IMG/VR virus record: IMGVR_UViG_3300028831_000218
Location: 1-21,336 of that record
DNA from: a virus
Length of the DNA: 21,336 bases
Strand: one strand, 5' to 3'
This document shows, one piece after another, positions 1-12,170 of this stretch. The position numbers and the translations under genes are program-made. Position 1 is the stretch's first letter. Each line of letters starts with the position of its first letter. The notes beneath the pieces were generated by a model, which saw only the letters and a list, made by a program, of their open reading frames with translations, made no database searches and was not told the origin of the DNA.

Positions 1-1620
1 GCGGTGGCAGCGGTCGTTAGCCTGCAGCTCGTTCTCCAGAGAGAAGTCTCTACTATACCAAATCACCTCGCTGGCACAGGTTAGATTGAGCCCGGTGCCC
101 CCGCTGCGGGGGCTGCTGATGAAGACCTTACAGTCCGGATCCTCGCGGAAGCGCTGAATGTTGGCCGCGCGCTGGTTCTGCGGAGTAGGACCTACGTAGT
201 CCACCCACCCAATCTTAGCGGCGTCCAGGGCGCGGGTGAGCAGCCTGTGGTCCCCGGCAAACTTAACCCAGACTATGACCTTGCCCTGAGCCTCCCTGAT
301 GATGTCCACGGCGGCGTCAGCGCGCCCGTTGGGCAGCTCCTGGAACATGGCCGGCTCGATAACAACGCCGTCCTCGTTCTTCTTGGCCGCCCGGCTGATA
401 AACCCGCTGACTATTTGCTGCAGCCTGATGATCCGCGTCAGGGCCATGCGGGCCGTGAGCACCCCGTCCTCCAGCTCCAGGAAGAAGTCTTTGCGCATCT
501 TGTCGTAGGTAGCGCGCTGCTCGGGGGTGAACAGAACCTCGCGCCTGATGAAGTTCTTGGGCGGCAGATCAAGGCAGTCGTCCTTGAGAACCCGGTAGGT
601 GTAGCTGTCTATCTTAGCCTTCAGCTCGTCCTCGTTCTGGTAGCCCACGATCTTCTTGGACTGGTAGCCGCCCATGCGGCAGAAGTGGTTGCGGAAGCTG
701 AAGAAGCTGTCGTAGCCTAGGATGTTCTTGTCCAGAAAGTAAAACTGGCTGTACAAGTCCTCAGCCCCCTGAGTAATAGGGGTGCCGGTGGCAATCAGGC
801 GGTAGGGAGCCAGCCGGGCCACCTTGACTATATACTTGGTCCGCTTGCTGTTCAGGTCCTTTATCCGGCTGCTCTCGTCCACGGCCAGCAGGCACCGGCT
901 GCCGGTGAGCACCTCCCGCAGGAACTCCTGACCCTTCTTGTGGCTCAGGCTGTCCACGTGCACCGCGATTATCCGCAGGCCCTCCTTGTAGGGCAGGGCC
1001 TGCCGCATAGCCTGCCGCTCCTCGGCGGTGGGGCTGGCTACCGTGTAGGCACCGCGCCACGGCACCACGTCCGGCAGATGCACGGGCACCTGCTCGTTAA
1101 TCCACTGAGCGTGGACCCCGTTGGGAGCTACTATGACCAGGGTGTCTATCTTGCCCCGGCTGCCGCCGTTTAGGAACAGGTCGGCGGCTAGATCTAAGAT
1201 AACCTTCGTTTTTCCAGTTCCCTGCTCAAGGAATAATCCATAAGCGGGGATGGGGGAGTTTAGTGCTGCTCTGGCAAGCCCGAAACACTTCATCTGGTGG
1301 TCGTAAGGCTTTGTCTTAAACGGGAACTCCCCGTCCGCAAACTGCACGGCCTCCTGAGCGCGGGCCTGCCGGTTATCCTTCTCCTGCTCCCGCATGGCCC
1401 GGAACTGCTCCAGCAGGCGCAGCGCGGGGCCGCGCCACGTGACTTGTTGCAGCTGGTTGTCCAGATACTCTATGTTGCTGCGGGTGGGCTCAAAGTACGG
1501 GGTGCCGCTGACGTAGCGCTTACGCCCCGGCAAGCCGCTTAGAGCAGCGTGCACGTGGACAGGCACCCTGCCTACAATCCACGCCTTCTTCTCGTCAGAG
1601 TCTATGGTAACGGGAATCAT
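1..1620 (-). CDS. SNF2/DEAD-type helicase, C-terminus cut by window edge
   Basis: Superfamily 2 helicase/ATPase that probably acts on phage DNA in replication, recombination or repair; the exact substrate cannot be told. I translated 540 codons without a stop from an ATG at 1620, and the frame is still open at base 1. Motifs appear in the expected order: Walker A GTGKT about residue 135, a DESS box in VDESSRIK about residue 239 (in place of DEAH), ATGTP about residue 268, GGTGLNL about residue 510, and QANDRCHR (motif VI, Q..DR.HR) at the cut end. Little beyond motif VI should be missing. The DESSRIK form is typical of small phage SNF2-like helicases. The ATG lies 2 nt after the stop of the preceding gene, so translation is probably coupled; only a weak GAGAG precedes it. 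Family call is sure; the biological role is inferred. Confidence 0.9.
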   Translation of the reverse strand, partial: MIPVTIDSDEKKAWIVGRVPVHVHAALSGLPGRKRYVSGTPYFEPTRSNIEYLDNQLQQVTWRGPALRLLEQFRAMREQEKDNRQARAQEAVQFADGEFPFKTKPYDHQMKCFGLARAALNSPIPAYGLFLEQGTGKTKVILDLAADLFLNGGSRGKIDTLVIVAPNGVHAQWINEQVPVHLPDVVPWRGAYTVASPTAEERQAMRQALPYKEGLRIIAVHVDSLSHKKGQEFLREVLTGSRCLLAVDESSRIKDLNSKRTKYIVKVARLAPYRLIATGTPITQGAEDLYSQFYFLDKNILGYDSFFSFRNHFCRMGGYQSKKIVGYQNEDELKAKIDSYTYRVLKDDCLDLPPKNFIRREVLFTPEQRATYDKMRKDFFLELEDGVLTARMALTRIIRLQQIVSGFISRAAKKNEDGVVIEPAMFQELPNGRADAAVDIIREAQGKVIVWVKFAGDHRLLTRALDAAKIGWVDYVGPTPQNQRAANIQRFREDPDCKVFISSPRSGGTGLNLTCASEVIWYSRDFSLENELQANDRCHR

Positions 1621-1622
1621 TC

Positions 1623-2459
1623 TTAAGCTAGGCTCTCTAGGTTCCACGTCTGGCTGTAGGCGTTAAACGCGTCGCTGCTGATTGACCTACCCTCGGACAA
1701 CACGCAGTACAGTATGTTCTTGTGGAGCTTTGTGGTGTCGGTGGTGTCCAGGCAGACCAGCATCTCCCGGCAGCTGCCTCGCCAGTAGTTAAACTCGTAG
1801 ACGTAGTCGTACATCTCCGTGGCCGTGAGGAACTCGGTCTTCACGGCTACGCTGACTATGGTGTTGCTGGTAGCGTCCATAATCACGGCACCGCGGTCAG
1901 TGCGGTCGCGCTTGCCGCTGTCGGCAAAGCTGAAGCTAGTGCCGTACTGCATCCCGGTGGTAGGGCTGAAGCTGCGCCCCACGAACAACCGCCCGAACGT
2001 AATGTTGGTCACGTTAGGGTCGCTGACGGTGATGCGGATGTACTGCCACGTCTGTATCGTAGAGCTGTAGTACCAGCTGTGATTGCGCAGCAAGGCCCCC
2101 CGGCGGGGGTCGTTAGCCTCTCCACTCCAACTGCCCGGCACGCTGGTCCGATGCGCCCAGAAGGGTCTGCTAGCCTGTAGATTGGTCCAGCTGGTGCCGT
2201 TATTGCTGGCGTCTATGACTATGGTGGCGGCGTAGCTGGTGTTCGTGTAGATAAGGCTGACTACGTCAAACTCCCGCTGCAGCCCGAAATTCCACGTGAT
2301 CACGGTGCTGCCGCTGGTAGTCCGCGCCACCGCTGTAGGGTCGTACGTAACCAGCTTGGACGCGGGGTAGCTGGAGTCCACGTTGGTCATGGTTGGCGTA
2401 GTGCTGAACGCCAAGTGCTGCGGATATTCCTCTATGGGTTGAGCGAAGAGGACGGCCAT
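1623..2459 (-). CDS. Discoidin-like (F5/8 type C) virion/tail protein
   Basis: A 278-residue protein, probably a virion structural protein in the tail tip. Residues about 25-165 read as a beta-rich galactose-binding/discoidin-type domain: a stretch on values at defined positions, then WNFG, FDVVSLIYTNTS, IVIDASNNGTSW and WQYIRITVSD, which is the strand pattern of F5/8 type C domains. The C-terminal about 110 residues are another beta-rich region that I do not recognise. There is no signal peptide or membrane segment. The ATG at 2459 is preceded by GGGGA about 6 nt upstream, and the stop lies 2 nt before the helicase start. The regulator gene lies upstream. Carbohydrate or glycan binding at the host surface is an inference from the fold. 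It could equally be a structural adaptor. Confidence 0.65.
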   Translation of the reverse strand: MAVLFAQPIEEYPQHLAFSTTPTMTNVDSSYPASKLVTYDPTAVARTTSGSTVITWNFGLQREFDVVSLIYTNTSYAATIVIDASNNGTSWTNLQASRPFWAHRTSVPGSWSGEANDPRRGALLRNHSWYYSSTIQTWQYIRITVSDPNVTNITFGRLFVGRSFSPTTGMQYGTSFSFADSGKRDRTDRGAVIMDATSNTIVSVAVKTEFLTATEMYDYVYEFNYWRGSCREMLVCLDTTDTTKLHKNILYCVLSEGRSISSDAFNAYSQTWNLESLA

Positions 2460-2535: not shown

Positions 2536-3048
2536 CTAAGTCACCTTGGTGAAAGTTCTTCTCGTAACAGCCGTGTACACCCGGTGGTAGGTCACGCCGA
2601 GAGCAAAGGCTATCTCATCATAACTCAGGCCAGCGGCGTAGGACGCCCGCATCAGTCGCACGGTGCCCTCGCTGAGTTTTTCACGCACGCGCCAGTCCCC
2701 GGCGTCCTCCGGAAGGCTCGGGTCGTGCCAGCAGTACCCGCCCGGCGCGCCGCCGCGGGCGTAGAAAGGCGTCAGGCTGCCTAGCTTCTCGCGTATTCTG
2801 CGCGCGGCCATTCCCACCCGCACGCGCGGGTCACACTCCCCTCTGCTGATCCGGTTGGCTATAACCTCGCTGGTAAGCTCCAACGGAGCCGCCTTGGCCA
2901 AGGCGTACAGCATGCCGGCCTCCTGCTGGCTGAGGGCCAGCACCTTCTCCTTGTAGATGGCCACGGTGGGATACAGCACCCACCCGTCCCTATAGATGGG
3001 AGAGTCCTGCGTCAGGTTGTAACCGCAGTGGGGACAGATTCCGGTCAC
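2536..3048 (-). CDS. Zinc-knuckle, winged-helix transcription regulator
   Basis: A 170-residue probable DNA-binding regulator with three parts. Residues 5-8 are a CPHC knuckle followed by GYN, as in short zinc-ribbon N-termini; a second cysteine pair is not obvious (further Cys occur singly). Residues about 35-110 follow the OmpR/PhoB-type winged-helix pattern: LSQQEAGMLYAL, then IANRI, then VRVGMAARRIREKLG, then a GAPGGYCW wing that corresponds to the usual RG.GY. Residues about 130-165 (YAAGLSYDEIAFALGVTYHRVYTAV) make a second helix-turn-helix. No receiver domain is present. The GTG start at 3048 is 5 nt after the preceding stop, with no good Shine-Dalgarno sequence, so coupling is likely. 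It sits between late tail genes and a helicase. A role in phage gene control is inferred and the target is unknown. Confidence 0.7.
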   Translation of the reverse strand: MTGICPHCGYNLTQDSPIYRDGWVLYPTVAIYKEKVLALSQQEAGMLYALAKAAPLELTSEVIANRISRGECDPRVRVGMAARRIREKLGSLTPFYARGGAPGGYCWHDPSLPEDAGDWRVREKLSEGTVRLMRASYAAGLSYDEIAFALGVTYHRVYTAVTRRTFTKVT

Positions 3049-3053
3049 GACCG

Positions 3054-3413
3054 TTACTGAGGACCAAACAGAGTCAGCTCTTCGTAGAGAACATTGGAGT
3101 CTCGCTTTAGGCGCTTGACGATGAAATTCTTGCCGGTGTCCAGTCCAAAGCGCGGGTACACTATGGTCACGGTGTCCCCCAGCTCAATGGCGTAGTTCTG
3201 TCTGTTGATTGCCACCGCCCACGTGTCGCGGTCCAGCTTGCGGAGCCCCAGAATCTGGCTGGCAAAGGTGGTGGCGTCAGTGCTGCTGGAGATAAGAGTG
3301 TTGAACTCCATCTCTCCAGACAAGGGGTGCTTCGTCTGCACCGTCAGGTCCTCCTGGACCACGGTACGGTACTCGCGCAGAGCAAAAGCTACTCGGGCTA
3401 CGTCAACCGGCAC
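3054..3413 (-). CDS. Tail hub-like protein, C-terminal segment as a separate gene
   Basis: A 119-residue protein that resembles the last about 110 residues of a tail-tip/hub family of proteobacterial phages and prophages. The family pattern as I know it is an LREYR-like segment, HP..GE, a threonine-leucine step, an alanine-rich helix ending in a basic residue, then lGD.V.i.yPRFGL..G..F.V and a final L.LfG. Here the gene shows ALREYR about residues 11-16, HPLSGE about 29-34, LGDTVTIVYPRFGLDTGKNF about 78-97 and LTLFGPQ at the end. The matching N-terminal part is in the 2210-residue protein at 5538-12170. The start is GTG at 3413 with AGGAGG 9 nt upstream, a strong site showing that it is translated on its own. 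It is not a fragment left by a local frameshift, because five small genes and the end of the large one lie between. Confidence 0.6.
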   Translation of the reverse strand: MPVDVARVAFALREYRTVVQEDLTVQTKHPLSGEMEFNTLISSSTDATTFASQILGLRKLDRDTWAVAINRQNYAIELGDTVTIVYPRFGLDTGKNFIVKRLKRDSNVLYEELTLFGPQ

Positions 3414-3431
3414 AGTCTGGTGCCTCCTTAC

Positions 3432-3695
3432 CTAGTCGTCTAGAGTGGTGCGGCCCGGCGCTGGAGTTGGCTGCGGAGCAGGCTGAGCCGGGGCGCACTT
3501 CTCCAGCCACACGGCGTTATTCTTGTCCACCTGCCGCTTGGTCTCCTCCGTGTCCCGCGCGCTGGTGTACACGGGCACGTAGATGCTGCAGAAGGTGTCC
3601 CGCACCGGCGGGATGGAGTTAATCGGGGCGGGTGAATCGGTCGCGCACCCGCTGACGGTAAGCAGGGTCAGCGTCAAGGCGATCGTGGATCTCAT
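3432..3695 (-). CDS. Rz1: Rz1-like outer-membrane spanin lipoprotein
   Basis: The 87-residue outer-membrane half of a two-component spanin, which fuses inner and outer membranes in the last step of lysis. Residues 1-17 form a lipoprotein signal (MRS, hydrophobic LTLTLLT, lipobox VSGC), giving Cys17 as the lipidated residue. The mature part has PPVRDTFCS and a second Cys near residue 60. The DT..T....N...W...C pattern is shared with small proteins found beside Rz in proteobacterial phages. The tail is Pro/Ala/Gln-rich, as usual for Rz1. The ATG at 3695 has GGAGGA 6 nt upstream and lies inside the preceding Rz gene in another frame (77-nt overlap), the classic embedded Rz/Rz1 arrangement. Confidence 0.8.
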   Translation of the reverse strand: MRSTIALTLTLLTVSGCATDSPAPINSIPPVRDTFCSIYVPVYTSARDTEETKRQVDKNNAVWLEKCAPAQPAPQPTPAPGRTTLDD

Positions 3696-3915
3696 GGACT
3701 TCCTCCACCTGAGCCAGAACCTCCTCGTTACGCTGCTGAGTGGCAGCGTTTTCCTTGTTGGTCTGCTCTACGATTACCTTCTGGCCCTCCAGGCGACCCT
3801 CCGCCCGGCCCTGACTGGTGGCGCTGCGCCTCATGAAGAACACAGCAGCCAGCAGGGCCAGCAGCAGACCGCCGGCCGCCAGTAAGCTACCTCCGCCGGA
3901 CAGGCCGGGTATCAC
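3619..3915 (-). CDS. Rz: Rz-like inner-membrane spanin
   Basis: The 98-residue inner-membrane half of the spanin pair. Residues about 8-27 are one hydrophobic segment (LLAAGGLLLALLAAVFF) followed by the stop-transfer residues MRRS. The rest is a charged periplasmic helix rich in Glu, Gln and Lys (about residues 35-80) that should form a coiled coil, as in Rz proteins. The start is GTG at 3915, which overlaps the holin stop codon as GTGA (shared bases 3912-3915), so translation is almost certainly coupled to the holin. Its 3' end overlaps the Rz1 gene. No enzymatic motif is present. The call rests on topology plus the embedded lipoprotein partner. Confidence 0.8.
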   Translation of the reverse strand: MIPGLSGGGSLLAAGGLLLALLAAVFFMRRSATSQGRAEGRLEGQKVIVEQTNKENAATQQRNEEVLAQVEEVHEIHDRLDADPAYRQRVRDRFTRPD

Positions 3916-4169
3916 GGGACGGTCGTGGTGGTAGTCGGAGTGACCACCGTGGTGGTGGTGGCATCCGGCGTCTGGTTCTTGGGCGAAATGGGCGGGTGCG
4001 GCGCGAAGATGGCGATGAGAGCACCCACGGCCGTGACCACCGCTGGCGCGTTGGCCGTGATGCGGGTGATCATGTCACTGTCGATGCCGAACATGCCGAA
4101 GAACACGGCGATGCCCGCCCACGTGCTGGGCTCCCGCAGCCGAGCTACAATGTAGTCCAAGGCGTTCAT
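3912..4169 (-). CDS. Holin-like membrane protein
   Basis: A small 85-residue membrane protein that probably times lysis by making holes in the inner membrane. The N-terminus contains REPSTWAGIAVFFGMFG; an S/PSTWAG segment at the start of the first membrane helix is common in phage holins. Hydrophobic segments are at about residues 15-31 and 40-60 (APAVVTAVGALIAIFAP), separated by a short polar turn. The C-terminal tail is unusual: almost only Thr, Val and Pro from about residue 69. The ATG at 4169 has AGGAG 8 nt upstream, and the stop overlaps the Rz start. Position directly before the spanin pair supports the holin call. It could instead be an antiholin or another small lysis-associated membrane protein. 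No endolysin gene is adjacent. Confidence 0.72.
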   Translation of the reverse strand: MNALDYIVARLREPSTWAGIAVFFGMFGIDSDMITRITANAPAVVTAVGALIAIFAPHPPISPKNQTPDATTTTVVTPTTTTTVP

Positions 4170-4205
4170 AGTCTGTACTCCTAGGTGGCGGGCAGAGCCG
4201 CCGGG

Positions 4206-4391
4206 TTAGTTCTTCTCATGCATCTCGTCCGTGACCTCCTCCTCGGACTGGACGCAGTGGGACTCCACCACGCTGTCGTTCTGCTCCTTCTCGCAGACCA
4301 CGGCGGCGGGCGCGGGGCCTTCCTCGGCCGGAGCCTGCCCGCAGGCGGCCACGACAAAGCAGAAGGCAACGGCAGCAAACAGCTTCTTCAC
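4206..4391 (-). CDS. Small lipoprotein of unknown role
   Basis: A 61-residue predicted lipoprotein. The signal peptide is MKK followed by a hydrophobic run and the lipobox VAAC, with Cys17 as the lipidated residue. The mature peptide is only about 45 residues, acidic (many Glu), with two more Cys near residues 33 and 46 that could pair. There is no Asp at mature position 2 (it is Gly-Gln), so sorting to the outer membrane is expected if the host follows the +2 rule. The start is GTG at 4391 with AGGAG 7 nt upstream. It lies just before the holin. A second o-spanin is unlikely because an Rz1 is already present. A superinfection-exclusion or receptor-masking lipoprotein is possible but is only an inference from size, sorting and position. 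Confidence 0.7.
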   Translation of the reverse strand: MKKLFAAVAFCFVVAACGQAPAEEGPAPAAVVCEKEQNDSVVESHCVQSEEEVTDEMHEKN

Positions 4392-4420
4392 GGGTAGTCT
4401 CCTATAAACACAGGGTTACA

Positions 4421-4915
4421 CTAACTCTTGTCCTCGGGCAAGGAGTCCTTGGCGGGCTCGGGCGGGGTGCCAGGAGGCGGCACCGGGGATGCCTCAACAG
4501 CAGCGGGCGGCACCCCATCCGGGTAGCGCCAGTCAAAGTTATCCCGGCGATTCTTCTGCGGCTCCGGCAACTTGTCGGGCTTGGGTCCCTTGGACTTCAG
4601 CTCGCCGATGTCGTGGCGCACCGCGTCGATAATCTGCTCAGCTCGGTTGTCAGTGCCCTTGTCGCCACCGGCAAAAGTGGTCCAGTGCTGCTCGTTACCG
4701 TAGGTCCACAGCTCGCCCAGGATGGTCTTACCCTCCTTGTTCAGCTTGTCGTAGAAGGCGTACAGGATCTCCGCAGCCTCAGTCAGCACGTCCGCGGTAA
4801 CACCGGGAATGGTCTGCAGCCGCTCCCTGAGCTTATCGTCATCAATGTCCCCGGCAAAGGCGTAGGCCCGCAGCTTGCGGACCAACTCGTTGGGGTCCTT
4901 AACGTAGTCCACCAT
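4421..4915 (-). CDS. Unrecognised protein with Pro-rich tail
   Basis: A 164-residue protein of a family I do not recognise. The first about 115 residues are helical and charged, with no signal or membrane segment: helices around residues 8-18, 24-35 and 40-60 (LTEAAEILYAFYDKL), then WTYGNEQHWTTF and a further helix before residue 110. The last about 50 residues are Pro/Ala/Glu-rich and likely disordered. The ATG at 4915 has GGGAG 7 nt upstream. Position between a DUF4376-type protein and lysis genes suggests a late product, either a small structural or accessory protein, or something acting with the lysis genes. No peptidoglycan-hydrolase catalytic motif is visible, so I do not call it an endolysin. 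Confidence 0.75.
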   Translation of the reverse strand: MVDYVKDPNELVRKLRAYAFAGDIDDDKLRERLQTIPGVTADVLTEAAEILYAFYDKLNKEGKTILGELWTYGNEQHWTTFAGGDKGTDNRAEQIIDAVRHDIGELKSKGPKPDKLPEPQKNRRDNFDWRYPDGVPPAAVEASPVPPPGTPPEPAKDSLPEDKS

Positions 4916-4939
4916 AATAGTTCTCCCTTTCCTACGGGG

Positions 4940-5530
4940 TTACTCGGGAGGCGGCGGGGGAGGAGGTGGCGGAGCAGGCGGCTCCGCCGGCGTCTCGCCG
5001 GGCCAGTCCTCATGGATAGGTATGCTTAGCAGCTGGTCCACCGTGGTGGCACTGTCTTTTTGCTCGCGCAACTCGCGGGCGCGGGCGTGCGCGGCGCTGA
5101 CGTGATTGCGGGCCGCCAGCGCAATGCCGATCATCTGGTTCTTACCCACCGTGACGGTGGTGTTGTCCGAGGCCGTGATAGTCTCGGTAAAGCTGTCGCC
5201 CTCCAGCACGGCGGCCACGGCCAGCCCGGCTAGATTCAGACGACTCTCCAGGTCCGTCTGAACCTTCTTACCGCCGCCTACGGGTGCGCCGTCGTCTATC
5301 ACCTTCTCACGCTTACGCTTCACGGCCTCCCACACGCCTGCGCGCACGGCCTCAACGTCGGTAACCGGGACACCGCTGGCCGCCGGAACCGCCTCGGAAG
5401 GCAAGGGTATGACAACGAGAGGCTCAATAACAGAAGAGACCGCATCCTCGTAGGCACCTGCGTAGTCACCGCCGCCTTTCTGTACCTGACGTCCGCTGAC
5501 CGGGTCATAAATTAACCAATTCTCGCGCAT
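4940..5530 (-). CDS. DUF4376-like tail-associated protein
   Basis: A 196-residue protein. Residues about 65-165 fit the DUF4376 pattern: a basic helix (AVKRKREKVID), a GA.V.GGKKVQTDLESRLNL segment matching the family's TD..S...L core, a T.T..DN..VTV step, then a terminal helix (HVSAAHARARELREQ). Such domains are usually found downstream of tail fibre or tail-tip genes in proteobacterial phages, often with fibre-assembly genes, which suits its place 7 nt after the 2210-residue tail-tip gene. The N-terminus (residues 1-20, IYDPVSGRQVQKG) resembles the short leaders seen on such proteins. The last about 20 residues are nearly pure proline. GAGGAG lies 3-5 nt before the ATG at 5530. The biochemical role of the domain is not established. 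Confidence 0.7.
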   Translation of the reverse strand: MRENWLIYDPVSGRQVQKGGGDYAGAYEDAVSSVIEPLVVIPLPSEAVPAASGVPVTDVEAVRAGVWEAVKRKREKVIDDGAPVGGGKKVQTDLESRLNLAGLAVAAVLEGDSFTETITASDNTTVTVGKNQMIGIALAARNHVSAAHARARELREQKDSATTVDQLLSIPIHEDWPGETPAEPPAPPPPPPPPPE

Positions 5531-5537
5531 AGTCTCC

Positions 5538-8500
5538 TCACTTCATCAGAGCTACAACCTGGATAATGCCAGCCGTCACGTTCATGTTAGATGGACTACC
5601 GGAAACAGTCGCCATCTGTAGGTAATAGGTTCCCGTGCCGTTGAGAGTACCTACTGCTTTAAGGGGCATTACAGTTTCCGAGTACACTGTGGAAGCGCCG
5701 CCATAGGTGTTCTCTTGAAGAACATTACTGGCCCCGTCAATAATTCGTATCCGGGGTATAAACTTCAAGCCCGCCCCAGTGACCTCTGCCTTACCAAAAA
5801 CATCAATGAGTATAGCCGCCGCCCCAGAGGTAGAGATGGTAGCCTGACATATAGTGGTGTAGGTGCTTCCTATATTGTTGACCGCCGAAACCAGCGCCGT
5901 GACACTATTGGAAGTTACCTGATTGTCCACAATAGAGGCAGTTATGACCTTGCCGGCCTGCACCTGCCCGCTGCTGTTCAGTCCCGCGCTGACCCGACCG
6001 TCGGTAAGCTCAGTCGGGCGGCCAACTATGCCGGCACTCCAATTAGGACCACGCGCGGCGAAAATGTCGTCTACAAAGGCCCCGTCTACGCCGTTGTCGT
6101 AATAAACCCGGCACGTCGCCCGCACGGTCCCCGCTGGCGCGGCTACCGTCATCACCCCGACACGCGTCCAGTTCTGGCCGGTATAGACCAAGGGGTAAGG
6201 ATTACCGTCGCTGGTGTAGTTACCCCACCAATACCCGCAGCTGATTACCTGGGCACCAGTGTAGTCCAGAAAATCTACAAAGGGGACAATCCGGGTGCTC
6301 GCGCCACTGTTGCCGCGACACATGACCGTGAAGAAGATCTGCTCCCCTTCCGACATGGGGACGTCAACAAAATACTGTGAGTACCCGCTGCCCCCGCCGT
6401 TCCAGAACCTAGACTTGTTTCCAGAGTAGCCAAAGCCTGTGTAGAGGTTGTTCAGTCCCACGCCTTGCGGGTTAGCCTCCTCGGAGGTAGGGTTGGGCGC
6501 AAGGTTAGTCCCGGCGGTGGCCGTGAGGGAACCCGCGTACCCCAAGCCGCCGATGGTAACTTGGCCGCCACCCGCGCCAGCCAGAGAGCCGTTAGATCCT
6601 ATGCTCACTCCGCTGTTCAACGAAGCACCTAGGTTGCCGATGCCGTTGTAGAGCTGAACCCCGCTGAAATAGATGGAGCCATTGTACACCATCGGAGCCG
6701 GGCTGGTGCCTATACCCGTCAGGTTGCCGTAGGGGTCCAGGGCGATGCGGCTGTTGCGCTGGGCGTCGGTGTCGCCGGAGAACCCGAGTCCGGTGAGCTG
6801 AACTTGCCCGCCCCCGGCACCACTCAGAGCTCCACCGGAGCTGATGCTGACGAGAGTGTTCTGGATGCCCTCGGTGCCGGTTAGGGCGCTCAGGTTGCTC
6901 GGCCGACTTGCGAGGTTAGCCCAGATGCGATCGCTAAACGGGCCGAAGTCAATACCGGAGACAGTATTCCCAGGTGCGTAGGCGGCCACGCCTACGTACA
7001 AGACCAAGTTGGCACCCGTGGAGGCCGTGTAAACCACAGAACCATTGGCGTAATACCGAACATTCGCTCCGTCGTAGGTGATAGTCCACCGGGTTTGGGC
7101 AGTGTAGCCCGTGCCTAGGTCCGAGACTACAGTTCCGCTGTGAAAGATGTAGTAATGTCCGTCGCTGGACCTATCTATGGAGTAGGTTAGATACTGGTAG
7201 TTACCGTCCGTGATGTTGCTGGTCAGTCCGATAAACGTGTCGGTGGTGTCGATTATCCCTGATACATAAGCCGTGCCCGTGTAACTCTCGCGAGAGTAGA
7301 CGTTGTAGTCCCATACAGACGCGGCCGTCACTCTCTTAGTGACGGTGTTACCCACGATATTGTACGTCCCGCCGTGTCTGTCATACAGACTCAGGCCACC
7401 CGTGGTATTCATCGGGTAGGGGCCGTAGAGAATATCGGTAATGGAATACCCGTAAGTGCCGGTGTTATAGACGTCCAACACCTTTGGATACAGCACCTGA
7501 CCCGCTGGCGCGGGCGTGGTGAGGTAGATCTGGCCGTCTATCCAGCAAGCCACCTGCTGCCCGTCGTAGGTGAGAGCCACTCTGGTGGCCGCCGTGACAC
7601 TATACGGACCTGCTCCCGCTATCACGCTGCCGCTTTGGTACAGAGTTATGCTGATCTGCCCCGCAGTCAGGGACTGTATCTCCATGAGGTACTTGTTACC
7701 AGCTAGAGTGTAACTGGTGGCGTCTCCAAGAGCTAGACGATGGAGCCATCCGCTTCCCGCGTTCTGCAGAGTTGAGCTGGTTATGAACGCGCTGCCATAC
7801 AGCGCCTGACCTCTTGCGCCGCCCTCCTCCGAGCCGTGTGTGCCGATCTTGCTGACGCTGTTACCTACAATAGTCTCGTAAGAACCTAGAGCAGTCAGCA
7901 CGCCGCTGGTGCCGGCGTTCAAGCTGCCGGTGTAACCCAAGCCCGTGATAGTGACCTGCCCGCCGCCCGCGCCAAGCAGATTACCCCCCGAGCCGATGCT
8001 GATGAGAGTGTTCTGAATACCCTCACTTCCCGCCAAAGAACTCAGGTTGGTGGGCCGCCCCGTAAGGTTGGTACTCCAGATGGCCCCTAGGGTGGAGTCC
8101 ACCTCCGTTGTAGCCACCCTCAACAACGCCAGCTTGCAGGTCGTCCCTCCGTTCATCTGGGACTGAACGTAGACGGAAATGTACGCGGCTTTAGCGGGCA
8201 CGGGACCCACCGCGTCTTTCTTGAACACCCAGGTGTTAGCCGAGCCGGGAGATAATACTGCCGTCAATCCACCGATATAGGTGGCATTACTATCATAAAA
8301 GTTAAATCCAACCTGCCAGTAGCCCACGTTTATGGAAGTGTTAACCCACCCCGAAACGTAGAAATTACCAGCCCCGGCCGGTAGAGGAATTAGTCCCGGG
8401 TAACTATTGTTCATGTAGGCGCTGCCGTTGACTCCCCCGCTGGCCAGCCAGTAGTTGCCGGGGTCGCCAGTGCTGGCCACCACTCTGGTCAGGTTATTTA

Positions 8501-11500
8501 TCGCGGTCCACGGACTGGTGCCGCCGGCAAGCGCCGTATTGGCTACGAGGTTATCCCCGCTAGTGGCTGAGAGATCTCCCAGATAGCCCAAGCCCGTTAT
8601 AGAAACCTGACCACCGCCGGCTCCGGTGAGGGCTCCGCCGCTGCTGATGCTGATTAAGCTATTCTGAATAGTCTCCGAGCCGGCGAGGCCGGAGAGATTG
8701 GTGGGGCGTCCCGTGAGATTGGTGCTCCACGCAGCTCCCAAGGTTGGGTTGTCCTCGGTGCCCGCCTTGGGAGTCCACTGAGTGGGGGCGTCCCCCATCT
8801 CCAGCATTATGTCGTCCCAGTAGAGCGTGCCGTTAATGCCGTAGCAGCGCACTTCCAGAAAGCTGGGGCTGGCGCTGGTGGTAATGGTGACAGTTATTCT
8901 CTTCCACTGCCCGGTTGGGAAGCTGGTGGTCAGGGTAACGTCCTGACCAACTACCGTGCCGTCGTAAAGAAGTAGAGATCTGTTAGAGGTAGCGGCTCCG
9001 GTGATGCTGGCGACCCACAACCACCCGGAGAGGGTGTACTTGGTGCTGGGCAGTATCCCCGTGGTTAAGCGCTGATAAATGTAGTAGTCGCCCCCCGTGG
9101 TGGCACCTACGATCTTAAAGGACTTGCCCCCGCTGTGGTAAAAGTCAGTGGAGGAGGTCACGGTGAGAACGCCAGAAGTGGTCCAGCTGCCGGTGCCCAA
9201 CTCTGCCGAGGAGTTGTCCAGCATGTTCTGGCCACCCACGGCACCCAGGAAAGCCAGAGCTCCGGCCCCTAACCCCGGAAGAGTAACCTGCCCTCCGCCT
9301 GCACCGCTCAGCGCGCCGTTGCTGCCCACAGTGACTAGGGTGTTCTGGATGCCCTCGCTGCCGCTCAGGGCCGCGAGGTTACTCGGGCGGCCGGTAATGT
9401 TAACCGACCACACACCGCCCAGCGTAGCGTTCAGGTCGCCGGTGTAGCCCAGCCCGCCGATGGTAACTTGCCCGCCCCCAGCTCCGCTGAGGGCACCGTT
9501 AGCTCCTATGGTCACGGCTCCGTTGACCACGCCGTAGGTACCGCTGGTAGTCAGCACGTTGCCGCTGGCGTCCAGCAAGTCCCCACCCAGCTTGGGTAGA
9601 TTGTAGCCGCTGAAGTCCCTTACCCAAGCAGCCCACGCGCTCTCGCTAGAGCTGACCCGCAGCCACATCTGGCCGGCGTTGGTGCTGTTGCCGCTGGTGA
9701 ACCGCTGCTTGATGCTGCCGCCGCTACTGTCCGTCCAGTCAACCCACGTCTCCAGCACGCCGTAGTTGCCCAGCCCGCTGAGCCCTATGTCGCTGGCGGC
9801 CTTGAACTCGCGCGCCACCTTCATGGGGAAGTTGGAGCGGTACCAGCTGGGCAGCTGATTGCTGCCGCGCGTGTCCGTAACACCGTCAAAGGTGGCGTTG
9901 AGCGCGCCGGTGTAGCCCAGCCCGCCTATGGTCACCTGTCCGCCGCCAGCGCCGCTGAGAGCGCCCGCGATGCTGATTGTGACGTAGCTGTTCTGAATGG
10001 AGCTGTCGGTCAGCAGAGTGCCGCCGCTGTTAGTCAGGTTGGTGCCGGCAACGGCACCGATGCTGCTGACGCCAGGCCACGTGCTCCCGTTCCAACGGGA
10101 CAGATACTGAGTGCTGGGTCTATACCACAGGTCGCCTATAGCAGTGGCGGTAGGCTGGGTCTCGGTGAAATACGTGGTCACCTTGCCGTCAGCAGTAGCC
10201 TGAGCCCCGGCCGCGTTGGTCAGCGCCAGCGCCACGCGAGTGTCCGTAACCTCCTGCCACACTGACCCGTTGTAGCGGTACAGCCTGTTGCCGTCGTCAG
10301 TGTCGAACCACAGATCGTTGGTGGCCGCCCCGGTGGGCGCGCTGGTCTGGTAGAACAGCGTGATGGCGGTGTTAGCCGCCGCCAAGGCGCTGAGAATGCC
10401 GGCACCGTAGGCGTCGTCTCCGTGCAGCACTATCAGCTTGATGGTGCTGGTGGTGCCGTCAGCCGTTGTCACCGTAACCAGCACCCAGCTGGTCAGCACG
10501 GAGTTAATCAAGTCGGTTAGGGCCAGCGTACGGGTGGTGCCGCTGCCCGTCAGGTTGACGGAGTTGCCCAGGTTGTCAACGGCTGTGAAGGTGTACGGCG
10601 TGGTGACGTTGGTGCCCGTGGCGGTAACGGTGGCGGTCTGGCCGCCGGGGCTGGCGTTGTTGTTATTGTCGTAATAGAAGTGAGTACGGTCCGTGGTCAG
10701 CACCAAGTTCTTGGGGCTGGCCCCCTTGCTCTTGGCGAGGGTAAAATTCTCCGAGACCGAGAACTCTCCCAGCGTGGCGCTGAGGGTCACCGTGGCCGTG
10801 TCGGCGCCGGGGTCGCTGACGGTGAACTTGCCGTCCGTCCCAATGGTCAGCCAGCTGCTGCCGGTGACGTTGCGGAACTGAACCTGCCCTATGTCGTTAA
10901 TCTGGGTCTGGTTTAGGAAGACCTTAAACTCGCCCTGATAGGTGTAGCTACCACCGCTGCCGTCGCTGGCGGTGGCTACAAAGATCTTGCTGTCCTTGAG
11001 GAAGCCGTTCAGGGTCTGGCGCGGCAGCGGGAAGCTGTCCACTGACTGCACCGTCATGTTCTTGGCGTAATTAGTCTTAACGCGGTACAGCTCGTTGGGG
11101 CTGGCCTGCTTCTGCAGAGCTGCCACGTCCTCCTGCCGCACGCTGACGCTGGGCGTGCGGAACTTGAACTGGCGGACCGCGAACTTACCAGCGCGGGTGA
11201 CAAACCAGAAGCCGTTGAAGCTGGCGCACAGGGTCTCCACCACCTCGTCAACCTGCAGGTCGGGCTCGCTGATGAACACGCCCTCAAAGGCGTAGGGCGC
11301 GTCCGTGGCAGCCTGCGCAAACAGGGTCAGGTCCAGGTCGCTGTCGGTTAGTCCGGCCTTGTCCTTTATCAGGTTCTTCACAAGATCCGGCACGTTGGTC
11401 AGGCTGCTGTAGGCCCCCGCAGCGTCCACGGTCAGGTCGCCCGCGGGCTTGGCCCCCAGCTTGAAGAACCCCTCGGCCAAGCACGTGCCGAAGAAGCCGA

Positions 11501-12170
11501 CCGGCACCGTGGCGCTCTGCAGAGCTGCGTAGTTGGCAAAGTCGCTGTAGGGGGTCAGAGCTACCCCGCGGTCGTACACCTTATTTATCCAAGCCAGCGC
11601 GCCGTCGTGCACCTGGAATATCAGGCGGCTGTTGTCAACCGGAACCGGGGTAATGTTGCGGGCCGTGCCGAGCAGCAGCGGCTTGCGGCGCTGCTGCAGG
11701 TCCAAGCCACCCTCCTTGCCGCCGCTGCCGGCGTACACGTTGGGCTGAATGGGCTTGGCCAGCTTGTAGCTGTTGTCCCGCAGCGCCAGGACCAAGTTGT
11801 CCCCGTCGGCGGTGATCTCGAGGCTGCTGCCCACAAACTCAGTGGTAAAGCTGCCGTAGCTAGCTCCCGGCACCCCGCGCTTGACGGTTACTGTTCTACC
11901 GTCCCAGTTGTAGCCCAGCAGGTAGTCCAGCAGGCCGTCCACGTTGTTGATGCTGGCGCTGCCGCTGCTGATCTGCGTGCCCCCCGGCACGTTCTGCTCG
12001 AACACGGAGGTCTCGTGGCTGAAGCCCTGCCGCAGCCGCAGAAAATACGGGGTTGTCTGCGCCAACGTAGCGTCGTCGGGCAGATTGTTGGCGAAAAAGA
12101 CGTTCTTGGTGGTGCCGGCCACGGGGTCGTAGGGCTGGCACTCCAGAAGATAGGCCCAACCAGTGCTCAT
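5538..12170 (-). CDS. Giant tail-tip/receptor-binding protein with hub-like N-terminus
   Basis: A 2210-residue protein encoded directly after the tape measure gene; probably the tail tip plus host-binding fibre. Residues about 1-375 resemble the N-terminal part of a phage hub family: PYFLRLRQG, a GxxSINNVDGLLDYL segment (family: G.I.L.N.DG.LD.L), GRTVTVKRG, YAGSGG, KPLLLGTARNITPV, VYDRGVAL, and NELYRVKTNYAKNMTVQ near residue 372, where the homology I recognise stops. Residues about 385-590 look Ig-like. About 610-690 carries two DLW....LYR/SRWNGS.W elements common in tail tips. About 735-850 is a fibre-type domain (RQR, SAWAAWVRDF). From about 870 to 2045 come a repeated linker and five carbohydrate-binding/LamG-like domains. 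The C-terminal 150 residues (from VSAGLNSSG) form a beta-rich cap. The ATG at 12170 has only a weak AAGAGA upstream. No protease or depolymerase active site was recognised. Confidence 0.8.
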   Translation of the reverse strand: MSTGWAYLLECQPYDPVAGTTKNVFFANNLPDDATLAQTTPYFLRLRQGFSHETSVFEQNVPGGTQISSGSASINNVDGLLDYLLGYNWDGRTVTVKRGVPGASYGSFTTEFVGSSLEITADGDNLVLALRDNSYKLAKPIQPNVYAGSGGKEGGLDLQQRRKPLLLGTARNITPVPVDNSRLIFQVHDGALAWINKVYDRGVALTPYSDFANYAALQSATVPVGFFGTCLAEGFFKLGAKPAGDLTVDAAGAYSSLTNVPDLVKNLIKDKAGLTDSDLDLTLFAQAATDAPYAFEGVFISEPDLQVDEVVETLCASFNGFWFVTRAGKFAVRQFKFRTPSVSVRQEDVAALQKQASPNELYRVKTNYAKNMTVQSVDSFPLPRQTLNGFLKDSKIFVATASDGSGGSYTYQGEFKVFLNQTQINDIGQVQFRNVTGSSWLTIGTDGKFTVSDPGADTATVTLSATLGEFSVSENFTLAKSKGASPKNLVLTTDRTHFYYDNNNNASPGGQTATVTATGTNVTTPYTFTAVDNLGNSVNLTGSGTTRTLALTDLINSVLTSWVLVTVTTADGTTSTIKLIVLHGDDAYGAGILSALAAANTAITLFYQTSAPTGAATNDLWFDTDDGNRLYRYNGSVWQEVTDTRVALALTNAAGAQATADGKVTTYFTETQPTATAIGDLWYRPSTQYLSRWNGSTWPGVSSIGAVAGTNLTNSGGTLLTDSSIQNSYVTISIAGALSGAGGGQVTIGGLGYTGALNATFDGVTDTRGSNQLPSWYRSNFPMKVAREFKAASDIGLSGLGNYGVLETWVDWTDSSGGSIKQRFTSGNSTNAGQMWLRVSSSESAWAAWVRDFSGYNLPKLGGDLLDASGNVLTTSGTYGVVNGAVTIGANGALSGAGGGQVTIGGLGYTGDLNATLGGVWSVNITGRPSNLAALSGSEGIQNTLVTVGSNGALSGAGGGQVTLPGLGAGALAFLGAVGGQNMLDNSSAELGTGSWTTSGVLTVTSSTDFYHSGGKSFKIVGATTGGDYYIYQRLTTGILPSTKYTLSGWLWVASITGAATSNRSLLLYDGTVVGQDVTLTTSFPTGQWKRITVTITTSASPSFLEVRCYGINGTLYWDDIMLEMGDAPTQWTPKAGTEDNPTLGAAWSTNLTGRPTNLSGLAGSETIQNSLISISSGGALTGAGGGQVSITGLGYLGDLSATSGDNLVANTALAGGTSPWTAINNLTRVVASTGDPGNYWLASGGVNGSAYMNNSYPGLIPLPAGAGNFYVSGWVNTSINVGYWQVGFNFYDSNATYIGGLTAVLSPGSANTWVFKKDAVGPVPAKAAYISVYVQSQMNGGTTCKLALLRVATTEVDSTLGAIWSTNLTGRPTNLSSLAGSEGIQNTLISIGSGGNLLGAGGGQVTITGLGYTGSLNAGTSGVLTALGSYETIVGNSVSKIGTHGSEEGGARGQALYGSAFITSSTLQNAGSGWLHRLALGDATSYTLAGNKYLMEIQSLTAGQISITLYQSGSVIAGAGPYSVTAATRVALTYDGQQVACWIDGQIYLTTPAPAGQVLYPKVLDVYNTGTYGYSITDILYGPYPMNTTGGLSLYDRHGGTYNIVGNTVTKRVTAASVWDYNVYSRESYTGTAYVSGIIDTTDTFIGLTSNITDGNYQYLTYSIDRSSDGHYYIFHSGTVVSDLGTGYTAQTRWTITYDGANVRYYANGSVVYTASTGANLVLYVGVAAYAPGNTVSGIDFGPFSDRIWANLASRPSNLSALTGTEGIQNTLVSISSGGALSGAGGGQVQLTGLGFSGDTDAQRNSRIALDPYGNLTGIGTSPAPMVYNGSIYFSGVQLYNGIGNLGASLNSGVSIGSNGSLAGAGGGQVTIGGLGYAGSLTATAGTNLAPNPTSEEANPQGVGLNNLYTGFGYSGNKSRFWNGGGSGYSQYFVDVPMSEGEQIFFTVMCRGNSGASTRIVPFVDFLDYTGAQVISCGYWWGNYTSDGNPYPLVYTGQNWTRVGVMTVAAPAGTVRATCRVYYDNGVDGAFVDDIFAARGPNWSAGIVGRPTELTDGRVSAGLNSSGQVQAGKVITASIVDNQVTSNSVTALVSAVNNIGSTYTTICQATISTSGAAAILIDVFGKAEVTGAGLKFIPRIRIIDGASNVLQENTYGGASTVYSETVMPLKAVGTLNGTGTYYLQMATVSGSPSNMNVTAGIIQVVALMK
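6505..9985 (-). repeat. Seven copies of a GAGGGQV...GLG linker inside the tail-tip gene
   Basis: The segment (A/S/N)L.GAGGGQV....GLG(Y/F/A) occurs seven times in the encoded protein, at about 9895-9980, 9425-9515, 9250-9335, 8570-8655, 7918-8010, 6781-6850 and 6520-6600. Most copies are preceded by a second conserved element, W(S/A)..(L/I)..RP(S/T)NL..L.G(S/T)E.IQN(T/S)L(V/I)(S/T)I, seen about 9340-9410, 8650-8735, 7995-8075 and 6840-6920; a diverged form (WSAGIVGRPTEL) lies near 6010-6050. The blocks are diverged at DNA level. Together they make a composite linker of about 50 residues that separates dissimilar domains. Confidence 0.85.
6935..7895 (-). repeat. Tandem pair of LamG-like domains in the tail-tip gene
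   Basis: Two adjacent beta-rich domains of about 150 residues each, encoded at about 7895-7410 and 7390-6935, share a register: ETIVGNSVSK against YNIVGNTVTK near the start, RVALTYDGQQVACWIDG against RWTITYDGANVRYYANG in the middle, and ILYGPYP against IDFGPFS at the end. They look like a diverged tandem duplication of a laminin G/concanavalin-type fold, suggesting ligand binding. The family assignment is by eye. Confidence 0.6.

What the first reader, a model, noticed from the sequence alone, without database searches (positions are those of the whole stretch)
3054..12170. A tail hub protein appears split into two distant genes, with a lysis cassette between them
The first about 375 residues of the protein at 5538-12170 follow the N-terminal part of a hub/tail-tip family, and the recognisable similarity ends at KTNYAKNMTVQ. 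The 119-residue protein at 3054-3413 starts near the point where that family should continue (ALREYR, HPLSGE) and ends with the family's C-terminal LGD.V.I..PRFGL..G..F pattern. The two parts look complementary with almost no overlap. The N-part has been extended by about 1800 residues of adhesin-like modules. The C-part has its own GTG start and strong AGGAGG site. Between them lie the DUF4376-type gene, an unknown gene, a lipoprotein, a holin and spanins. Family patterns are from memory; splitting, and assembly of the hub from two chains, is inference.
Basis: partly seen in the sequence, partly recalled or inferred. Interest (0 to 1): 0.78.

Follow-up and report, generated by a model that had tools for sequence, protein, structure and literature searches.

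The report
Phage tail hub split in two
The protein that closes the end of this phage's tail is made from two separate genes lying about eight kilobases apart, the first carrying a giant host-binding fibre, and other phages have cut or opened the same hub at the same loop independently, so this loop looks like a natural place to hang new fibres on a phage tail.

Summary
One PHROG profile, phrog_8917 (613 positions), matches residues 6-380 of the 2210-aa protein at positions 88-481 (E 1.6e-63) and the 119-aa protein at 498-609 (E 2.8e-13). The two matches do not overlap. In 144 of the loci I collected (some repeat one genome) the same hub is a single ORF. The gene that often follows it (phrog_8610) sits downstream of the 119-aa gene here.

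The split is not a one-off. Related contigs and one distant contig have it, all breaking at the same loop. A tree plus an AU test (p 1.6e-5) supports two independent splits. A third lineage carries an in-frame, propeller-like insert in that loop, still in one chain.

AlphaFold of an intact relative (pLDDT 96) gives a T5 pb3-like baseplate hub. The window's N-part modelled alone loses the strands next to the break. hubC shows purifying selection between its two closest copies.

Best reading: hubN-fibre and hubC are separate chains that together form one tail-tip hub, with the fibre leaving at an internal loop rather than at the C-terminus. Fold, recurrence and conservation are computed; association in the virion is inferred. 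Lambda and RcGTA hubs are split too, but elsewhere. I found no isolate with this split.

The parts
11043..12170 (-). hubN: residues 1-376 of the 2210-aa protein, N-terminal three quarters of the tail hub
   Evidence: phrog_8917 positions 88-481, E 1.6e-63; own hub HMM 42-392; AF2 model of the window protein aligns to T5 pb3 16..651, Z 12.2
5538..11042 (-). fibre/adhesin extension fused to hubN (residues 377-2210)
   Evidence: same ORF; Ig-like fold at aa 485-585 (about 10416-10718); CBM_4_9 at aa 982-1107 (about 8850-9227), E 1.3e-6; aa 381-755 conserved at 47% with L105
3054..3413 (-). hubC: 119-aa separate gene for the C-terminal quarter of the hub
   Evidence: phrog_8917 positions 498-609, E 2.8e-13; C-only HMM E 1.5e-34; 58-60% identical to hubC of L105/L119; dN 0.0036, dS 0.145 between L118 and L119
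3423..3429 (-). ribosome-binding site AAGGAGG of hubC, nine bases before the GTG
   Evidence: sequence read
4940..5530 (-). DUF4376 tail-fibre-associated protein between the hub halves
   Evidence: Pfam PF14301 E 3.8e-18; phrog_2837 tail protein E 4.8e-12
4421..4915 (-). 164-aa protein of unknown function between the hub halves
   Evidence: no family at E 0.05 or better; no homologue outside the window's own record among the fetched loci
4206..4391 (-). 61-aa lipoprotein-like protein (AACG lipobox)
   Evidence: translation; lipobox read by eye
3912..4169 (-). holin-like membrane protein
   Evidence: weak phrog_297 holin E 0.1; homologue in the same position in L111, E 3e-6
3619..3915 (-). Rz-like inner spanin
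   Evidence: phrog_1026 Rz-like spanin E 2.3e-6; homologue in L111
3432..3695 (-). Rz1-like lipoprotein overlapping Rz; its stop lies 18 bases before hubC
   Evidence: translation (SGC lipobox read by eye); homologue in L111 E 3e-14
1623..2459 (-). phrog_8610-type protein that directly follows the intact hub gene in several relatives
   Evidence: phrog_8610 E 3.7e-22; alignment to the gene after the hub in L002, L004, L005, L006; directly follows hubC in L105 and L111
12183..18956 (-). tape measure protein, directly upstream of hubN as in intact relatives
   Evidence: ORF; homologues upstream of hubN in L007, L105, L111, L119

Best explanation
This is a genuine split baseplate hub of the T5 pb3 / gp27 fold. 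An ancestral single-chain hub gene was opened at one loop, between the strand ending ...NxTVQ and the following helix. The 5' part (hubN) was fused to a long adhesin fibre. The 3' part (hubC) became its own gene with its own start site, downstream of the lysis cassette. The two chains most likely fold together during tail assembly, hubC supplying the long helix and the last strands, so that three copies of each make one closed trimeric hub from whose internal loop three fibre arms emerge. Shown by computation: complementary halves of one family, the intact form in relatives, fold of the intact form, the same breakpoint in two lineages that the tree separates, an in-frame insertion at the same loop in a third, and purifying selection on hubC in one close pair. 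Inferred: physical association, trimer, which domains hubC completes, fibre exit point and role in host binding.
For: phrog_8917 matches 88-481 and 498-609. 144 loci have both parts in one ORF; nine loci (six contigs) have them in two ORFs. The break falls at hub positions 392-396 | 399-405 in window, L105, L119/L120, L111 and L056. The window group is one clade (SH-aLRT 100); L056 groups with intact L102/L081 (99); one split clade is rejected (lnL -86.8, p-AU 1.6e-5). Both halves of L056 are closest to the same intact hub, L102 (51% and 47%), and the two halves place L056 and the window group the same way. L164 has a roughly 285-aa propeller-like insert at the same loop in one chain. Intact L026 folds at pLDDT 95.9 and matches T5 pb3 over its whole length (Z 18.8, 456 residues). 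The window N-part alone reaches Z 12.2 over 333 residues and residues 350-380 drop to pLDDT 40-55. hubC dN/dS is about 0.025 between L118 and L119.
Against: No complex could be modelled and no coordinates were available, so contacts between the halves were not measured. The window model used a shallow alignment (43 rows), so the low confidence near the break may partly be technical. All split cases are metagenomic contigs; no isolate or virion proteome. On hubC alone (115 columns) a single origin of the split is not rejected (p 0.47). hubC of the second lineage rests on one contig. The selection test rests on one close pair of sequences.
Confidence: 0.87

Rival explanations
1. hubC is a decaying remnant: the large protein alone forms a working hub, and the 119-aa ORF is a leftover of the ancestral gene.
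For: hubC is short and the fibre fusion is very large.
Against: Strong purifying selection (dN 0.0036, dS 0.145 for L118 vs L119); a strong ribosome-binding site; conserved length and position in the related contigs and in L056; no replacement C-part in the large protein; hubN alone loses the strands beside the break in the model.
Confidence: 0.05
2. The two pieces are joined at the RNA or protein level (intron, intein, trans-splicing or ribosome bypass), giving a normal single-chain hub.
For: Phages use such tricks. L105's large protein ends in a sequence that looks to me like a Hint (intein-type) domain, although Pfam does not recognise it.
Against: The fibre reading frame runs on directly from hubN and is itself conserved (47% with L105 over 375 residues); hubC has its own start and ribosome-binding site; several complete genes lie between; I saw no intein-like ends in the window protein (no formal search).
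Confidence: 0.04
3. The arrangement is an assembly error or chimera.
For: The window is a virus record held without a named isolate, and all split relatives come from metagenomic virus contigs.
Against: The same order (hubN-fibre, small genes, hubC, phrog_8610, helicase) is found in contigs of 26-92 kb from several samples at 40-65% protein identity, and the same break appears in a distant lineage.
Confidence: 0.02
4. hubC is a complete stand-alone protein, for example a tail-tip completion or chaperone factor, that only resembles the hub's end.
For: It lies at the lysis end of the cluster and has a weak Phage-tail_3 match (E 0.0059, below cut-off).
Against: It matches the exact missing segment (498-609 of 613) and groups with the C-parts of intact hubs in alignments and trees. 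It would also leave the large protein without any C-part.
Confidence: 0.04

Closest known systems
Baseplate hub protein pb3 of phage T5 (gp27-like, four hub domains; PMC10038345)
   Same: Whole-length fold match for the intact relative (Z 18.8, 456 aligned).
   Different: pb3 is one chain and its FNIII/fibre part follows the last hub domain at the C-terminus. Here the fibre leaves from inside the fold and the last part of the hub is a second chain.
Lambda gpL + gpJ and RcGTA gp13 + gp15 (hub divided between two proteins; PMC10721106)
   Same: Precedent for one hub fold made of two proteins with other genes in between.
   Different: There the break lies between hub domain I and the rest, within the domain II insertion, and in lambda the fibre follows domain IV. 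Here domain I is in hubN and the break is near the C-terminal end, with hubC downstream of lysis genes.
phrog_8917 single-chain hubs (EBPR siphovirus 2 gp72, Azospirillum phage Cd 48, Caulobacter phage Sansa 38 and prophages)
   Same: Same protein family; in several the same downstream gene.
   Different: One continuous ORF.
L164 (IMGVR_UViG_3300025030_000420), single-chain hub with a propeller-like insert
   Same: Foreign domain at the same loop.
   Different: The chain continues into the C-part; no split.
Phage genes in pieces caused by homing endonucleases (for example split ribonucleotide reductase genes; from my own knowledge, papers only listed, not read)
   Same: A gene cut in two whose parts work, or are assumed to work, together.
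   Different: No homing endonuclease was recognised between the halves; a fibre and lysis genes are there instead.

Membership tests
phrog_8917 tail hub family | Sequence match along the whole profile | tested here: met
   Met jointly by two proteins: 88-481 and 498-609 of 613.
phrog_8917 tail hub family | Gene order tape measure - hub - phrog_8610 | tested here: met
   Tape measure precedes hubN and phrog_8610 follows hubC (one HTH gene between), with the fibre and lysis genes in the middle.
phrog_8917 tail hub family | Single continuous chain | tested here: not met
   Two ORFs in window, L105, L119/L120, L111, L056; one ORF in 144 other loci. The name is kept because the two pieces together meet the sequence test.
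T5 pb3 / gp27-type baseplate hub | Four-domain hub fold | tested here: met
   Intact relative L026: Z 18.8, 456 residues. Window N-part alone: Z 12.2, 333 residues. hubC was not folded by itself.
T5 pb3 / gp27-type baseplate hub | Trimer closing the tail tube | not testable with these tools
   No complex prediction or coordinates.
Lambda gpL/gpJ-type divided hub | Break between hub domain I and the rest, within the domain II insertion | tested here: not met
   Break at profile 481|498 of 613; hubN aligns to T5 pb3 from residue 16 to 651.
Pfam Phage-tail_3 (PF13550) | Score above the curated cut-off | tested here: inconclusive
   hubC 16.9 bits against a cut-off of 23.
Homing-endonuclease gene in pieces | Endonuclease gene between the parts | tested here: not met
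   No endonuclease family among the intervening proteins searched; the two lipoprotein-like ORFs were not searched.

The most novel reading that the evidence does not exclude
A tail-tip design in which the fibre is attached through an internal loop of the hub fold and the hub is closed in trans by a small second chain made from the lysis end of the operon. Because the hub cannot close without hubC, its supply could act as a late checkpoint for tail assembly. Nothing I ran tests the checkpoint part.
Probability: 0.15. Interest if true: 0.8.

Novelty: new variant of a known kind. Interest (0 to 1): 0.62.

Why it matters
The hub is the most conserved ring-closing part of phage tails, and divided hubs were known to me only at one boundary (lambda, RcGTA). 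A second division point, reached by the tree at least twice and also used for an in-frame insertion, points to a loop that tolerates both domain insertion and chain ends. That bears on how phages swap receptor-binding fibres while keeping the tail machine working. It also warns annotators that small unnamed genes after lysis cassettes can be tail parts.

Tried and rejected
Single-sequence pattern scans with hubC or hubN found nothing or one truncated contig; wide alignments were too diverse to scan with; closer alignments worked. A sequence profile of the hub against the PDB gave no real match, so the fold assignment rests on structure comparison only. An AU test on 103 sequences did not finish and was replaced by one on 35 chosen rows. 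No split hub was found among isolated phages. The Hint-like end of L105 and the ends of L111 and the window protein gave no significant Pfam match. Literature searches for a split hub found only the lambda/RcGTA case. Rejected: remnant gene, joined product, assembly error, stand-alone factor (see rivals).

Full report
What was checked. The finding states that a tail hub is split between a 2210-aa protein (5538-12170, minus) and a 119-aa protein (3054-3413, minus). Both ORFs exist at those coordinates. In PHROGs both hit the same family, phrog_8917 (613 positions): the large protein with residues 6-380 at profile 88-481 (E 1.6e-63), the small one with residues 14-117 at 498-609 (E 2.8e-13). A profile of my own from nine intact hubs gives the same picture (42-392 and 404-514 of 514), and a C-only profile finds no second copy anywhere in the window (next best E 0.7). 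hubC has AAGGAGG nine bases before its GTG.

The intact form. In EBPR siphovirus 2, Azospirillum phage Cd, Caulobacter phage Sansa, Microcystis phage yong1 and Synechococcus phage MinM1 the hub is one gene, as it is in plasmid records. A family search rang in 29 of 385 genomes of one bacterial class (a few of these matches are partial or weak). Of 167 loci with a hub match, 144 have both parts in one ORF, 9 (6 contigs including the window) have them in two, and the rest have only one part, most of them cut at a contig end. These are loci found by my queries and some repeat one genome, so this is not a frequency. In several intact relatives the gene after the hub is related to the window's 278-aa protein at 1623-2459 (phrog_8610). 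In the window that gene lies after hubC, with one HTH gene (2536-3048) between. So the block fibre - DUF4376 - lysis lies between the two halves of what is one gene elsewhere.

Recurrence. Contig IMGVR_UViG_3300037423_000960 (L105) and sisters L119/L120, and 3300042691_021079 (L111), have hubN fused to a long extension, then small genes, then hubC, then phrog_8610, then a helicase-like gene. A further contig, 3300017989_001641 (L056), has hubN fused to collagen repeats (PF01391, E 3.8e-40), then a glycosyltransferase/methyltransferase gene, then hubC, a small ORF and, by my reading of its sequence, a phrog_8610-like gene. In all, the break lies at hub positions 392-396 | 399-405, in the linker whose intact consensus is about NWTVQ-tDLAGSV-xxRRxFLA. 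In a 103-hub tree the window, L105, L119 and L111 form one clade (SH-aLRT 100) and L056 falls with intact L102 and L081 (99). Holding all split hubs together costs 86.8 log-likelihood units (p-AU 1.6e-5 on 35 rows). Both halves of L056 are closest to L102 (51% and 47%). On the 115 C columns alone a single origin cannot be rejected (p 0.47), so the claim of two origins rests mainly on the N-part.

The same loop, not split. Contig 3300025030_000420 (L164) has one 842-aa ORF in which hub positions 6-403 and 402-514 are separated by about 285 residues of YGNGxFV-type repeats, which I read as a beta-propeller (Pfam matches weak). Other hubs carry inserts at other loops: near position 225 (L102, L157, L158, L163), near 316 (L047, L075, L078, L104) and near 470 (L168, Kelch repeats, E 2.6e-32). 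So the family often carries extra domains in loops; the window's loop is the only one at which I saw a large extension with the rest of the hub in a distant gene.

Structure. AlphaFold2 of intact L026 (64 sequences) reached mean pLDDT 95.9 and pTM 0.92. It matches T5 pb3 over its whole length (Foldseek E 3.8e-20; VIA Z 18.8, 456 residues, chain 19..710), with Mu gp44, T4 gp27, VgrG and others also matching; lambda gpJ matches only from model residue 181. The break lies in the loop 371-387, between the strand at 363-370 and the helix at 388-395. The window's first 600 residues, folded without hubC, give a confident hub core matching T5 pb3 16..651 (Z 12.2), but residues 350-380, which correspond to strands at pLDDT above 90 in the intact model, fall to 40-55. 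This fits strands that need hubC to fold, though the alignment was shallow. The lambda papers describe hub domain III as replacing the beta3-beta4 loop of domain IV (PMC11101478) and domains I and IV as the last tube ring. From this I infer that hubC completes domains III and IV.

Selection. hubC of L118 and L119 differ with dN 0.0036 and dS 0.145. This is what a working protein shows, but it is one comparison. The fibre region after the break is conserved too (47% with L105 over 375 residues).

Mechanism, in order of certainty. Shown by computation: the halves are one family, the intact form is a T5 pb3-type hub, the break is at one loop and recurs. Likely: both chains are needed and meet during tail assembly; the fibre arms leave at the loop. 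Guess: the fibre is the central, host-binding one. The collagen fusion in L056 would need three chains to meet, which fits a trimer. I saw no in-frame version in the window's own clade, so the path insertion -> growth -> fission is only one possible history; a direct rearrangement is another.

Compared with the known. Lambda (gpL + gpJ) and RcGTA (gp13 + gp15) show that a hub may be made from two proteins with genes between (PMC10721106), but there domain I is cut off, and in lambda the fibre follows domain IV. Here domain I stays in hubN and the C-terminal end is the separate piece. I therefore call it a new variant of a known kind.

Limits. All split examples are metagenomic. No complex was modelled. 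The holin call is weak. No endolysin was recognised among the window proteins searched.

Noticed in passing
L105:7441-7890 (end of the 1587-aa hubN-fibre protein): The protein ends in a glycine-rich stretch followed by CVHEDSWVETQEGLKRAKDVVAGDYVLSL..., which looks to me like a Hint (intein-type) domain; Pfam does not recognise it.
   Followed up: partly
window 2536-3048 (-): A 170-aa protein with a zinc-ribbon-like start and HTH (Sigma70_r4_2, E 1.9e-4) sits between hubC and phrog_8610 in the window; in L105 and L111 hubC abuts phrog_8610.
   Followed up: partly
L056:12878-14602: A fused glycosyltransferase-methyltransferase gene lies between the two hub halves.
   Followed up: no
L168:8660-11269; L157:7598-10327; L158:7841-10342: Kelch (L168) or weakly propeller-like inserts lie in other loops of single-chain hubs (hub positions about 470 and 225).
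   Followed up: partly
L131, L134 (genome loci): The hub lies in an ORF of about 1500 aa, apparently fused to a long upstream protein.
   Followed up: no
window 1-1647 (-): A helicase-like gene (my reading of the sequence) follows phrog_8610 directly and is conserved in place in L105, L111, L118, L119 (53-65% identity).
   Followed up: no
window 3432-5530: No endolysin was recognised in the lysis cassette; it holds two lipoprotein-like genes (4206-4391 and Rz1-like 3432-3695).
   Followed up: no
L024, L025 (Pannonibacter sp. SL95): Hub matches spread over overlapping frames, suggesting frameshifted prophage hubs.
   Followed up: no
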